From the NCBI GenBank assembly GCA_025449845.1, contig JANWIP010000019.1, positions 1-64,000 of the forward strand: a stretch of 64,000 bases of DNA. Reading direction: 5' to 3'. Below the pieces are notes generated by a model. The model was not told where the DNA came from. It searched no databases and saw only the letters and a program-made list of their open reading frames with translations. This document shows positions 78-59,946 of this stretch, in pieces. The stretch is from Solirubrobacteraceae bacterium. GTDB lineage: Bacteria; Actinomycetota; Thermoleophilia; Solirubrobacterales; Solirubrobacteraceae. A program made the position numbers and the translations under genes. The stretch's first letter is position 1; each line of letters opens with the position of its first letter.

Positions 78-1466
78 ATGCACGGCCCTCCGGGTGCTGT
101 GCGATCACTGTGCCCTCGGAGCGCACCCTCGAGCATGGATCAGCACCTCAGCAACCTCGAAGAAAGCTCGCGCAAGCCCTTGACTTTTCATCCGCAGATG
201 CACGTTGAGCAAAAGCAGACAACGGTCTGCGAATCAAAACTCGTTGGCCGGTTTGGGGGGTTCGCGGTCAGTAAGGGGCATGGTGATGTGACCGCCTCCA
301 GCATCCCTGCGGACCGCGCCGGCGGCTACGCCCGCTACCTGGAGTCAAAGACGGTGGAGCCCGACCGCGGGGACTACTACCTCACGCCGGAGGGCGACAT
401 GGTGCAGGCCCCCGGCCGGTGGCTGATGGACAAGGAGACGATGGAGCGCCTCGGGGTCAACACCAGCGGCACCGTTGAGGGCGAGGACTTCATCGCGTTG
501 ATGGAGGGCCGCCACCCCACAACCGGCGAATGGCTACGTGCCGTCGGTGCGGGCGGCGGCCGCGGCGGCGGGATCGACGTCACCTTGATTGCCCCGAAAT
601 CCGTGTCCGTCGTCTGGGCGCTCGGGGAAGCGTGGCAGCGCGAAGGGATCGAACAAGCCCACGCCCGGGCGGTGGAGCAGACGATCCTCTATCTCCGCGA
701 GCAGGTGCCCGTGGTGCGTCGCCGCTACGGCGAGGAGGTGATCGAAGAGCAGGCGCGGGATGTGATCGCCGCGGAGTACCGCCACACCACCGCGAGGGGT
801 CTCAGCGGCCACGCCCCCGACCCCCAGATCCATAGCCATGTCGTGATCACCGGCGCGATCCGCCAGGACGACCGCGTAGTCGCGGTCGCGTCGCGTCCGG
901 TGTTCCGTGCGGCGCGGGAGCTCGGCGCGTTCTACCGCTCCACCCTCGCCGATGAGCTGACCCACGAGGGCTATGTCATCGAGCGGGGCACCGGGAAGGG
1001 CGGCCGGTACTTCGAGATCCAGGGTGTCCCTCGTGAGCTGCGCGAAGCGTTCTCGGGGCGCACCCATGAGATAGCGAAGGCCGCGGAGCGGTTCCGTGCC
1101 CGTTACGGTCGCGCACCCCGGGACGGGGAGCTGCGAGGCCTCGCGTTGGAGAACCGCCGCGCGAAAAAGCCCGCGACCCGCGGGGACCTCGCCCGCGCCT
1201 GGCGAGAGACTGCGGAGCCCTCCGAGTTCGGCCCCGGCGAGGTGGTGGGCCTCCTCACACAGCCGGCGCCGCCCGCCGCGGAGCGGGGTGTGCAGGAGCG
1301 CATCGAGGGTGCCCTGACAGAGCAGCACGCGATCTTCACCGCCCCGGAGCTGCGCGCTGTCGCGCTGGAGCAGACCACGGGGGAGATGCCGCCCGACATG
1401 GCGCTCACCCTCGTGCGGGACATGCTCAGCGACCGGCAGATCCTGACCCTTGTGGGCGTCACATGA
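78..1466 (+). CDS. MobF-family (TrwC/TraA-like) conjugative relaxase domain protein; true start may be downstream of 78
   Basis: Protein contains RGDYYL...GRWL...RGGGIDVTLIAPKSVSVVWAL and the His-rich metal motif DPQIHSHVVITGAI typical of MobF/TrwC relaxases. Confidence 0.85.
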   Translation: MHGPPGAVRSLCPRSAPSSMDQHLSNLEESSRKPLTFHPQMHVEQKQTTVCESKLVGRFGGFAVSKGHGDVTASSIPADRAGGYARYLESKTVEPDRGDYYLTPEGDMVQAPGRWLMDKETMERLGVNTSGTVEGEDFIALMEGRHPTTGEWLRAVGAGGGRGGGIDVTLIAPKSVSVVWALGEAWQREGIEQAHARAVEQTILYLREQVPVVRRRYGEEVIEEQARDVIAAEYRHTTARGLSGHAPDPQIHSHVVITGAIRQDDRVVAVASRPVFRAARELGAFYRSTLADELTHEGYVIERGTGKGGRYFEIQGVPRELREAFSGRTHEIAKAAERFRARYGRAPRDGELRGLALENRRAKKPATRGDLARAWRETAEPSEFGPGEVVGLLTQPAPPAAERGVQERIEGALTEQHAIFTAPELRAVALEQTTGEMPPDMALTLVRDMLSDRQILTLVGVT

Positions 1467-2887
1467 CCACCTTGAAGGTCCGTGCGCAGGAGCAGGCAAT
1501 CGAACGCCGCGCCGCCACGCTCGCCAAACCAGCCGGAAGGGATGTCGGGGACACCGCCCGCCGGAACGCCAAAAGGGAAGTCGCTGAGCGGATCGGAGCA
1601 CCACTCACCCGGGAGCAGCAGGACGCGCTGCGGACGCTCACCGGCCCTGAGCGTGCCGTCGTGCTCGTCGGCCCCGCCGGGGCGGGGAAGGGCATCGTGA
1701 TCGACGCCGCCGCGCGTGCCGAGCAGCTCGCCGGCCGCGAAACCCTTGGCGTCGCCGTCTCCGGTTCGACCGCGGAGCTTCTCGGCGCAGGAAGCCCAGC
1801 CCTGACCGGGCAGACGACGACGCTCGTCGCGCGCGCCGAGAGCGGCGCCGTCCACGTAGGCTCGGACACCGTCGTGATCCTTGATCAGGCAGGGATGAGC
1901 GATCACACCCGCCTGGACCGGCTCACTGACCTGGTCGAGCGGACGGGCGCAAAGCTCGTCGCGGTCGGCGACGGCAAGCAGCTCCCCTCGATCGGCCCGG
2001 GCGGGATGTTCGACCGCATCACCGCGCACACCCCGACCGCGGAACTCCACGACATCAACCGCACCAACGACCCCGAGGAGCGACGAGCCTGGCAAGCACT
2101 ACGCGCCGGCGAACCAGAGCAAGCAATGGCGCACTACCACGACAGGGGCCAGTTGCAATACCAGGACACCCGCGATGAGGCCGGTGAGCACGCCGTGGAG
2201 CGCTGGCACACCCTCACCCAAGAACACGGACTCCGGGAGGTCGCGTTGATCGCGGACGCCTCAAACCAAGAGATCGACCGCCTCAACGCCCGCGCGCAAC
2301 ACGTCCGCACCCAGCACGGCGAACTCACCGAACACGAGATTCCCCTCCAGGCCGTCCACTACGGGCTGCGCAAAGGTGACCGCGTGGCGTTCACCGCCCA
2401 GCACCGCCCACCCCAAGCACCACGCGTCGAGAACGGCACCCGCGGAGAAATCACCCACATCGACCCCGAACAAGCGCAGGTGACGGTGACGCTCGACGGC
2501 AGCGACCGCCAGATCACCCTCGACGGCGACGACCTGGAGACTCTCCGTCTCGCCTACGCCCAACACATCTACCGCCAGCAAGGCGCGACCGTCGACCGCG
2601 CCGTCGTCGTAACCGGCGGTTGGCAGACCAGCAAAGAGTCCGCGTACGTCGAGGCGTCCCGCACGCGCCACGGCACCGACACCGACTGGTACATCGCCCG
2701 CGAAGACCTCGGCACCCAGGGCGAGGACACCGACCGCACCACACGCCTCGCCGAACGCATGCGCCAAACCCGCCCCCAAACACCCAGCCTCACCTACAAA
2801 GAACTACCCGACCCCACACGCCCAGACTGGCCCCAGCCCACGAACGCCCCGAACACGACCACGAACGCGCACGATGACGAACGATAG
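1463..2887 (+). CDS. TraA/RecD-like helicase portion of a MobF relaxase, encoded as a separate ORF
   Basis: GPAGAGKG Walker-A-like motif, VVILDQAGM Walker-B-like motif, AVGDGKQLPSIGPGGMFDRI; ATGA overlap (1463-1466) with the upstream relaxase ORF. Confidence 0.85.
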   Translation: MTTLKVRAQEQAIERRAATLAKPAGRDVGDTARRNAKREVAERIGAPLTREQQDALRTLTGPERAVVLVGPAGAGKGIVIDAAARAEQLAGRETLGVAVSGSTAELLGAGSPALTGQTTTLVARAESGAVHVGSDTVVILDQAGMSDHTRLDRLTDLVERTGAKLVAVGDGKQLPSIGPGGMFDRITAHTPTAELHDINRTNDPEERRAWQALRAGEPEQAMAHYHDRGQLQYQDTRDEAGEHAVERWHTLTQEHGLREVALIADASNQEIDRLNARAQHVRTQHGELTEHEIPLQAVHYGLRKGDRVAFTAQHRPPQAPRVENGTRGEITHIDPEQAQVTVTLDGSDRQITLDGDDLETLRLAYAQHIYRQQGATVDRAVVVTGGWQTSKESAYVEASRTRHGTDTDWYIAREDLGTQGEDTDRTTRLAERMRQTRPQTPSLTYKELPDPTRPDWPQPTNAPNTTTNAHDDER

Positions 2888-3440: not shown

Positions 3441-3575
3441 ATTCTCGCACGCCGGGCGGGGGAGGCAAGGCGACTCTCCCGACGTGCTCTGTCGAAGGCT
3501 GCACCCCAGAAACCGTGTCCCGAAACGTGTCCCCGACTCGGCAGATATGTGGCCACCGGACCCCACCCAACCCGA

Positions 3576-3661
3576 CATTATTTGGCTCTAGAAAGTCAAA
3601 TCGGCCGCCTGAGGCCCATCTACGGAACCGAAGGTCGGGAGTTCGAATCTCTCCTGGCACG
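3576..3661 (+). other. Candidate attachment-site scar: CATTATTTGGCTCT signature plus tRNA 3' half (anticodon loop CTACGGA to acceptor/discriminator)
   Basis: 3620-3661 CTACGGAACCGAAGGTCGGGAGTTCGAATCTCTCCTGGCACG has a T-arm and 3' acceptor strand but no matching 5' half upstream; looks Arg(ACG)-like. Confidence 0.6.
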
Positions 3662-3888
3662 TTCATCGTCGTCTTGTCGTAGATATACGGGGCCCGCTGG
3701 CCCTCGGATTAGCTTAGCTGGAGGAAGCGCGCCCTGAGCCTGAGCGCGAGGCCGCAGACCGCGTAGAGGATGGCGATGCCGATGAGCGTGAACTTGATGG
3801 CTGAGCAGGCAGCGGCGAACGGCGGGGCGAAGCTGCCGCCTTTGCCGGCGAGCGTGAGTAGCAAAGCGACGTTCGGTCGCCCGGCTAT

Positions 3889-58816: not shown

Positions 58817-59560
58817 TTGGGGATGCACTTCATGAGCGACATCGAACGCCCCGACCTGCAGGCCCGCATCACCGTCTGGCAGTCCAAGTACAGCGCCAGC
58901 AAGGTCCACGCCTGCGTGAACGCGGCGCGGGTGCTGTGGGCGCGATTTCGACCTCGTTACCGGCACCCACAACGCGCTGCTGACCGACCCGCGACGAAGG
59001 GGCTGAGGCTTCCCGCCGTGCCGCTGGAGGAGGAAGACCAAGCGCTGTGGGGATGCGCGATATACGCGGGGATACGCCTCGGCGAGCTACGCGCGCTCCG
59101 AGCCGAAAAGATCGACTTCGCCCTCAAGCGCATCAAGATCCACGCCGGCTGGGATCAGTACGAGGGCGAATCGACCCTAAGACCGAAAAGGGCAAGCGCA
59201 CGACTGTCGTCATCGAGCTACTCGACCACCTGCTCGTCAGGCACCTCGAGTGCACCGGCCGAACCGGTCGCGACCTCGTATTCGGCCGGACAGCGAGCGA
59301 CCTATTCTGACCCGGCACCATCCACAAGCGCGCACGATGCGCGTGGGAGGGGGCACGGCACCGCGAGGAACGAAGAGAGCGTCATCCCCGAGGGCGAACG
59401 CATCCGCGCGATCGGCCTGCGCGACTCCGACACGGCCGTCTCGCACATGCTCGACGCCGGCATCACCATCGACAAGGTCAGCAAGTTCATGGGCCACGCC
59501 TCGATCACCGTCACGATCGACCGCTACTTACCGGACGCCCCCGAGTGGCCGACGATCTCA
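58817..59560 (+). pseudogene. Decayed tyrosine recombinase (phage-type integrase)
   Basis: IYAGIRLGELRALRAEKIDFALKRIKIHAGWDQYEGE, then frame change to DPKTEKGKRTTVVIELLDHLLVRHLE..., then MLDAGITIDKVSKFMGHASITVTIDRYLPD back in the first frame. Confidence 0.8.
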
Positions 59561-59701
59561 CGTCATATTTTTGTCGTCGGCCTGCTTATGGGATCCTGCC
59601 GCTTCGCGGCCGGGCGATGGCGAGAGGCGGCCGTGGGCGATTCGCCTGATCCCTAGGCTCTCGCGGGCGCAGCCGAATCGATTAGCCTTCGTAATCCGCG
59701 T

Positions 59702-59791
59702 GGAAGGGTGGCAGAGCGGTTGAATGCACCGGTCTTGAAAACCGGCAGGCGGGCAACCCCCGCCTCGGGAGTTCGAATCTCCCCCCTTCCG
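59702..59791 (+). tRNA. tRNA-Ser(TGA)
   Basis: GGAAGGGTGGCAGAGCGGTTGAATGCACCGGTCTTGAAAACCGG...GAGTTCGAATCTCCCCCCTTCCG. Confidence 0.95.
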
Positions 59792-59828
59792 TCTTATGCC
59801 AACCCTCAAGTAGCGTTTTCGCGAGGAC

Positions 59829-59946
59829 TGGCGCGAATTGTGGCGCGAGCAGTCATTATTTGGCTCTGTAGAGCCAAATGTTAACGGTCTCGGAAACTGT
59901 TGGACGGGCAACCCCCGTCCCGAGGGCTCGAATCCTTCCCTCTCCG
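59829..59946 (+). other. Candidate attachment-site scar: TGGCGCGA direct repeats, CATTATTTGGCTCT palindrome, tRNA-Ser 3' half
   Basis: 59886-59946 GGTCTCGGAAACTGTTGGACGGGCAACCCCCGTCCCGAGGGCTCGAATCCTTCCCTCTCCG has anticodon arm, variable arm, T-arm and acceptor 3' strand but no 5' half. Confidence 0.7.

What the first reader, a model, noticed from the sequence alone, without database searches (positions are those of the whole stretch)
59829..59946. Scar B: same CATTATTTGGCTCT motif and 12-nt-period repeats before a tRNA-Ser 3' half
Seen: TGGCGCGA repeated at 59829 and 59841, CATTATTTGGCTCT at 59854-59867 inside a perfect 10-bp inverted repeat (ATTTGGCTCT-GT-AGAGCCAAAT), then a tRNA-Ser 3' half with a disturbed anticodon loop. 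The 14-mer is identical to scar A although the tRNA types differ. Two elements with different tRNA targets sharing this flank would imply a common integrase-arm or attP architecture.
Basis: partly seen in the sequence, partly recalled or inferred. Interest (0 to 1): 0.7.

Follow-up and report, generated by a model that had tools for sequence, protein, structure and literature searches.

The report
Shared palindrome at tRNA-integration sites
The spot is the worn-down end of a mobile DNA element that once inserted into a serine tRNA gene, and it carries a 20-letter palindrome that many different integrating elements in this bacterial order also carry, mostly a whole number of DNA turns from the crossover point, which suggests that they share one helper protein.

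Summary
The conserved unit is a 20-bp palindrome, TTTGGCTYT-NN-ARAGCCAAA, on the element side of tRNA 3' halves.

Scar A is not a scar: it is the attR of an element whose attL (intact tRNA-Arg(ACG) plus tyrosine integrase) lies at the end of contig C29 (43/44-bp direct repeat). A third case, on C24, is a compact element in tRNA-Thr (44/44-bp repeat). Scar B is a remnant attR: P arm, palindrome and decayed tRNA-Ser 3' half, with the element interior gone.

In relatives the palindrome sits 5' of Arg, Ser, Thr, Met, Lys, Cys and Ala tRNA 3' halves, usually behind paired 11-13-nt-period direct repeats (arm-type sites) that differ between elements. Palindrome-to-anticodon spacers are mostly 11-12, 19-23, 31-33 or 41-42 nt: 1, 2, 3 or 4 helical turns. 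Its halves do not covary, so it is not an RNA hairpin. Its integrases do not group together.

Best reading: a site for a dimeric accessory protein, perhaps host-encoded, phased with the crossover. The binder is unknown. The phasing was noticed post hoc, then held in 5 of 6 new sites.

The parts
58817..59656 (+). Broken tyrosine-integrase gene (frameshifted remnant) 5' of tRNA-Ser(TGA); its link to scar B is not shown
   Evidence: PF00589, E=2e-08; long isolated branch in the integrase tree
59701..59793 (+). Intact tRNA-Ser(TGA), the likely original target (attL side) of the scar B element
   Evidence: ARAGORN, Rfam RF00005; the relative G002:C42 has the same P arm fused to a tRNA-Ser(TGA) 3' half
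59799..59813 (+). CCAACCCTCAAGTAG: outer part of the P arm, conserved in three relatives of the scar B element
   Evidence: alignment
59829..59848 (+). Two TGGCGCGA direct repeats with a 12-nt period: putative integrase arm-type sites
   Evidence: 16 of 23 linked sites have such a pair against 12% of random segments
59858..59879 (.). Conserved palindrome ATTTGGCTCT-GT-AGAGCCAAAT: putative accessory-protein site
59885..59946 (+). Decayed tRNA-Ser 3' half (attR core remnant), from the anticodon stem to the 3' end
   Evidence: 73% identical to tRNA-Ser(TGA) over 63 nt
78..2887 (+). Element A: TrwC-type relaxase (78-1466) and AAA_30 helicase-like part (1463-2887)
   Evidence: PF08751 E=4.4e-61, PF13604 E=2.1e-39
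3514..3533 (+). Element A: CGTGTCCC direct repeats, 12-nt period, putative arm-type sites of the P arm; TGTCCC repeats also follow tRNA-Arg(ACG) on C29
3580..3601 (.). Element A: the same palindrome, one mismatch (ATTTGGCTCTAGAAAGTCAAAT)
3619..3662 (+). Element A attR core: tRNA-Arg(ACG) 3' half, 43/44 identical to the intact tRNA-Arg(ACG) on contig C29

Best explanation
Scar B is the attR of an integrated element that used a lambda/L5-type tyrosine integrase and a tRNA-Ser gene as attB. Its interior is gone; what is left is the P arm (two arm-type direct repeats and the palindrome) and a decaying tRNA 3' half. The palindrome is a double-stranded DNA site for a dimeric accessory protein, placed a whole number of helical turns (1, 2, 3 or 4) from the strand-exchange region at the anticodon loop, so that the bound protein faces the integrase-bound core and helps to fold or regulate the recombination complex. 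Elements of the order with different integrases, arm repeats and tRNA targets carry the same site, so the binder is more likely a shared, probably host-encoded factor (an IHF/Fis analogue in function) than the product of one element. Shown by sequence: attL/attR direct repeats, arm repeats on both sides in A and C24, conservation of the palindrome, mostly phased spacing, no base-pair covariation. Inferred: binding by a protein, its identity and origin, and its role in integration or excision.
For: attL/attR direct repeats from the anticodon loop to the 3' end: 43/44 for A, 44/44 for C24, 46/46 for G002 tRNA-Ser(CGA), 45/46 for G009 tRNA-Arg(TCT). Scar B's P arm is 82% identical over 149 nt to that of an element in tRNA-Ser(TGA) of G002. 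Linkage of the palindrome to tRNA T-arms, 16/108 against 3/493. Arm-repeat pairs upstream in 16/23 linked sites, 12% at random. Spacers of 11-12, 19-23, 31-33 and 41-42 nt (one site, L115, reads 32); Rayleigh p=2.8e-6 for 16 groups, 0.0025 for a conservative 10; six sites found after the idea: V-test p=0.0095. No covariation between palindrome halves. Palindrome-bearing integrases are scattered in the tree. The palindrome also stands before a LexA-box gene in several genera, which would fit a host regulator.
Against: No binding protein has been identified. Phasing was noticed post hoc; allowing any period the conservative p is about 0.02, and two sites are out of phase (35 in L210, 26 in L120). 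Many groups share the 21-nt spacer and may share ancestry. Phasing on the P' side is weak: p=0.03 for nine values, and a tenth (113 nt) fits worse. Two thirds of tRNA-Arg(ACG) att fragments lack the palindrome. The tree does not exclude a single origin of the trait.
Confidence: 0.5

Rival explanations
1. The palindrome is bound by the integrase itself, as an extra inverted pair of half-sites in the P arm.
For: It lies in the P arm at integral turns from the core, and its tRNA-proximal half is the better conserved one. Inverted arm-type-like sites are known at integrase start sites in cluster J phages (PMC3706429).
Against: The same palindrome is kept by integrases that are deeply separated in the tree and that use different arm repeats; it differs in sequence from the arm repeats and from the tRNA cores.
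Confidence: 0.17
2. The palindrome is an operator for an element-encoded regulator or directionality factor (Xis/RDF), controlling int or excision.
For: Element A carries an HTH_17 excisionase-like gene (PF12728, E=4.8e-11). RdfS of ICEMlSym(R7A) binds attP and also controls intS (PMC11963761).
Against: Excisionases of this kind usually bind direct repeats or diffuse sites rather than a perfect palindrome (own knowledge; RdfS has no consensus motif). The palindrome also stands at chromosomal SOS-box loci without an element. A common element gene was not looked for systematically.
Confidence: 0.17
3. The palindrome has no present function: the elements share it by descent or by module swapping of P arms.
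For: Many sites have the same 21-nt spacer, and related P arms are recognisable within groups. The integrase tree does not exclude one gain and several losses.
Against: Flanking P-arm sequence has diverged beyond recognition between groups while the palindrome is kept, and the spacer differs by whole turns between groups.
Confidence: 0.1
4. The palindrome acts as an RNA hairpin or terminator in a transcript that runs across attP towards the tRNA half or int.
For: It is a perfect inverted repeat with a 2-nt centre at scar B.
Against: No U-tract follows. Paired positions 8 and 13 vary independently, and A-C mismatches (15) outnumber G-U wobbles (10). Spacing follows the DNA helical repeat.
Confidence: 0.03

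Closest known systems
Mycobacteriophage L5-type and cluster J/K tyrosine-integrase attP sites (Omega, Boilgate)
   Same: Core of about 43-44 bp overlapping a tRNA 3' half, crossover at the anticodon loop end, tRNA rebuilt at attL, pairs of about 10-bp direct repeats as arm-type sites on both sides (PMC3706429; PMC10865867). L5 needs a host factor, mIHF (table in PMC4111918).
   Different: No conserved palindrome in the P arm is described in the passages read; these elements are relaxase-bearing or remnants, not phages, and are in another class.
Phage lambda attP with IHF and Fis sites
   Same: Accessory host-protein sites placed between arm sites and core so that the DNA folds around the integrase (PMC4111918).
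   Different: IHF sites are not palindromic (own knowledge), and the palindrome here is not a Fis consensus (own knowledge). No binder is known here.
ICEMlSym(R7A) IntS/RdfS system
   Same: Tyrosine-integrase element with several arm-type sites and an accessory factor binding in attP (PMC11963761).
   Different: RdfS has no consensus motif; here there is a sharply conserved palindrome shared by different elements.

Membership tests
tRNA-integrated tyrosine-recombinase element (lambda/L5-type attachment site) | Intact tRNA at one end and an identical tRNA 3' portion at the other | tested here: met
   C24 44/44 and A 43/44 (contigs C29 and C19; the join is inferred). For scar B the half is decayed, 73% to tRNA-Ser(TGA).
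tRNA-integrated tyrosine-recombinase element (lambda/L5-type attachment site) | Tyrosine integrase gene next to the attachment site | tested here: met
   C24 433 aa and C29 414-codon frame, PF00589 E about 1e-32 with PF14659. For scar B only a broken PF00589 gene beyond tRNA-Ser(TGA), link not shown.
tRNA-integrated tyrosine-recombinase element (lambda/L5-type attachment site) | Arm-type repeats on both sides of the core | tested here: met
   TGTCCC pairs after the tRNA and before the palindrome in C24 and A. For scar B only the P side survives.
tRNA-integrated tyrosine-recombinase element (lambda/L5-type attachment site) | Integrase binds core and arms and recombines attP with attB | not testable with these tools
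   needs a bench experiment
Integrative and conjugative or mobilizable element (for A) | Relaxase gene | tested here: met
   TrwC relaxase at window 78-1466
Integrative and conjugative element (for A) | Mating-pair or type IV secretion genes | not tested
   the element is split over two contig ends and the missing middle is not held
RNA hairpin or intrinsic terminator (for the palindrome) | Base-pair covariation and a U-tract | tested here: not met
   for covariation; no U-tract
Accessory-protein (IHF/Fis-like) site | Fixed helical phase with the crossover | tested here: inconclusive
   P side p=0.0025 conservative, about 0.02 if any period is allowed, new sites p=0.0095; P' side weak
Accessory-protein (IHF/Fis-like) site | A host protein binds it | not testable with these tools
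   no candidate protein identified

The most novel reading that the evidence does not exclude
The order of this genome (that of Solirubrobacter) has an unrecognised, sequence-specific, dimeric host factor for integration that binds TTTGGCTYT-NN-ARAGCCAAA. Different integrative elements have taken up its site in a helically phased position, and the host itself uses it upstream of a LexA-box gene, which would tie element movement to the DNA-damage response.
Probability: 0.2. Interest if true: 0.8.

Novelty: new variant of a known kind. Interest (0 to 1): 0.55.

Why it matters
Tyrosine integrases of the lambda/L5 kind usually need a host DNA-bending protein, and for most Actinobacteria that protein is unknown. 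A palindrome shared by different elements and phased with the crossover gives a concrete 20-bp bait with which to look for such a factor, and a sequence mark for finding element ends in poorly assembled genomes of this order.

Tried and rejected
14-mer as the unit: rejected; only two copies exist, and the palindrome is the unit. Wide spread: the strict palindrome-plus-T-loop pattern gave 4 loci in the 85,462-species collection and none in viral contigs; of the four, L121 and L123 show no tRNA fragment by eye. Scar B's half as a copy of tRNA-Ser(GCT), (GGA) or (CGA): matches to these are shorter or no better than to TGA, and the relative G002 points to TGA. Integrase clade as the carrier of the palindrome: labels are not clustered on the tree. 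RNA hairpin: rejected. TTGCA-pair plus TTTGGCT pattern across the order: only two hits, so the SOS-box locus is too variable for an exact pattern. Small SOS-box ORF: no Pfam or NCBIfam family. My first LexA regular expression was wrong and found nothing; corrected. An earlier report of such a palindrome: none found in the open-access papers searched. No structure prediction was run; it would not have identified the binder.

Full report
Check of the observation. All stated features are at the stated places: TGGCGCGA at 59829 and 59841, CATTATTTGGCTCT at 59854-59867, the perfect palindrome at 59858-59879, and a tRNA-Ser 3' half ending at 59946. The 14-mer occurs only at 3576 and 59854 in the whole 3.27-Mb genome and in none of 150 relatives. 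The shorter 9-mer TTTGGCTCT is found 24 times against 2 for its reversed control; eight of those sites were read and none has a tRNA gene near it, so the linkage belongs to the palindrome, not to the 9-mer.

What the two loci are. Scar A is one end of an element. Its tRNA-Arg(ACG) 3' half is 43/44 identical to an intact tRNA-Arg(ACG) on contig C29, next to a 414-codon tyrosine-integrase frame. Window position 1 is the end of contig C19, and the C29 integrase also faces a contig end, so the two are most simply the two ends of one element, with a TrwC-type relaxase and an HTH_17 excisionase-like gene. That they join is inferred, not shown. On C24 a compact element is complete: tRNA-Thr(CGT), a 433-aa integrase, what looks by eye like a relaxase-helicase remnant, a PIN-domain gene, TGTCCC repeats, the palindrome, and a 44/44 tRNA-Thr 3' half. 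Scar B keeps only the P arm, the palindrome and a decayed tRNA-Ser 3' half, just behind intact tRNA-Ser(TGA). In the relative G002 the same P arm (82% over 149 nt) is followed by a tRNA-Ser(TGA) 3' half, which makes TGA the likely target. A broken integrase lies on the other side of that tRNA; its link to B is not shown.

The shared unit. Scanning 151 genomes for TTTGGCTNTNNANAGCCAAA with up to 2 mismatches gave matches in 53, with few control matches. In the loci examined a tRNA T-arm follows the palindrome in 16 of 108 oriented sites against 3 of 493 control windows. Upstream of linked sites there is a pair of direct repeats with an 11-13-nt period in 16 of 23 (12% at random, 13% of unlinked sites). 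The repeats differ between elements (TGTCCC, TGGCGCGA, TTCCCTAC, CGTCGTCT, TGGCGA), and in A and C24 the same repeat occurs on both sides of the core, as arm-type sites do. Only the palindrome is common. With one mismatch allowed it is concentrated in this order; outside it, in the same class, only five genomes had a site, with two control hits there. One named carrier is Solirubrobacter phytolaccae.

A test that does not select for the palindrome. A 16-nt piece of the tRNA-Arg(ACG) core was searched in 232 genomes of the order and the fragments were read. About a third carried the palindrome, with its centre 29-33 nt from the anticodon; the rest had other flanks and no palindrome.

Spacing. 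Measured by script from the palindrome's end to the anticodon, P-side spacers are 11-12 (Ser), 19-23 (Arg, Thr, Lys, Met, Cys), 31-33 (Met, Ser, Arg) and 41-42 (Met, Thr), that is 1, 2, 3 and 4 turns of 10.5 bp. One site, L115, was not matched by that script and reads 32 from the matched string; I had typed 31, which changes nothing of weight. Exceptions are 35 (L210, tRNA-Ala) and 26 (L120, a distant genome). I noticed the pattern after 21 sites, so it is post hoc. Six sites gathered afterwards gave 41, 22, 31, 21, 11 and 35 (V-test p=0.0095). Rayleigh p is 2.8e-6 for 16 groups and 0.0025 for a conservative 10; allowing any period it is about 0.02. The grouping was mine. Palindromes 3' of an intact tRNA phase only weakly: nine values p=0.03, and a tenth of 113 nt, not included in that test, fits worse.

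Nature of the site. Over 30 linked palindromes the paired positions 8 and 13 vary independently and A-C mismatches outnumber G-U wobbles, so it is not kept as an RNA helix. The tRNA-proximal half is the better conserved. The integrases that come with it are scattered: L181/L038, L048/L055, L103/L031 and L118 do not form one group, though a single origin is not excluded. Together this fits a dsDNA site for a dimeric accessory protein used by several integrase lineages. That the protein is host-encoded is my preferred but unproven choice.

A second context. In several genera the palindrome, preceded by a TTGCA-type pair with a 12-nt period, stands 74 or 84-85 nt before a LexA-type box and a small ORF: 6 of 72 sites against a 0.8% background. 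These loci look orthologous and so count roughly once. If the same protein binds there it is host-encoded; this is the main, and weak, support for that choice. The phasing of these offsets has only two distinct values and should not be leaned on.

Comparison. The architecture is that of L5/cluster J attP sites: a 44-bp tRNA core and paired 10-bp direct-repeat arm sites (PMC3706429; PMC10865867), with a host factor in the L5 case (PMC4111918). I found no report of a conserved palindrome shared across different integrases in the open-access papers searched. I therefore file the loci as ordinary tRNA-integrated tyrosine-recombinase elements and remnants, and the palindrome as a new variant feature of that kind.

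Noticed in passing
L049 (G000:C31, near contig end), L030, L033, L074, L080, L084, L132, L214, L219: The palindrome, behind a TTGCA-type pair with a 12-nt period, stands 74 or 84-85 nt before a LexA-type box and a small ORF of unknown family; no tRNA is involved.
   Followed up: partly
L020, L073, L129, L209 (one genus): A palindrome with up to 1 mismatch lies between an upstream gene and the leader of a 16S rRNA operon; one conserved locus, possibly chance or a terminator.
   Followed up: partly
L130:1501 (G168:C222): A tRNA-Arg(ACG) 5' half is followed by the palindrome, with no 3' half: it looks like a broken attL.
   Followed up: no
L048, L070, L090, L106: just 3' of the intact tRNA: A second recurring motif, roughly AAAAGCCCTGTAAATANGGGCTTTT, follows the intact tRNA at attL, and similar GCCCTGCAAAT stretches flank palindrome-less attR fragments; perhaps a terminator or another protein site.
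   Followed up: no
L174, L177, L183, L186, L190 (palindrome-less tRNA-Arg(ACG) fragments): These att fragments share an ACCAAA motif about 90 nt 5' of the anticodon, apparently the arm of another integrase group; in some (L174, L177) the integrase lies next to the fragment instead of the intact tRNA.
   Followed up: no
L078 (G026:C37), L178 (G018:C114): Several tRNA-Arg(ACG) 3' halves in a row on one contig, consistent with tandem element arrays.
   Followed up: no
L120 (MAG PMG_196): A distant genome has the perfect palindrome 26 nt 5' of a tRNA-Ala(TGC) 3' half, out of phase; chance or an independent case.
   Followed up: no
L048:11020-11469: A PIN-domain (PF10130) gene sits inside the compact C24 element.
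   Followed up: no
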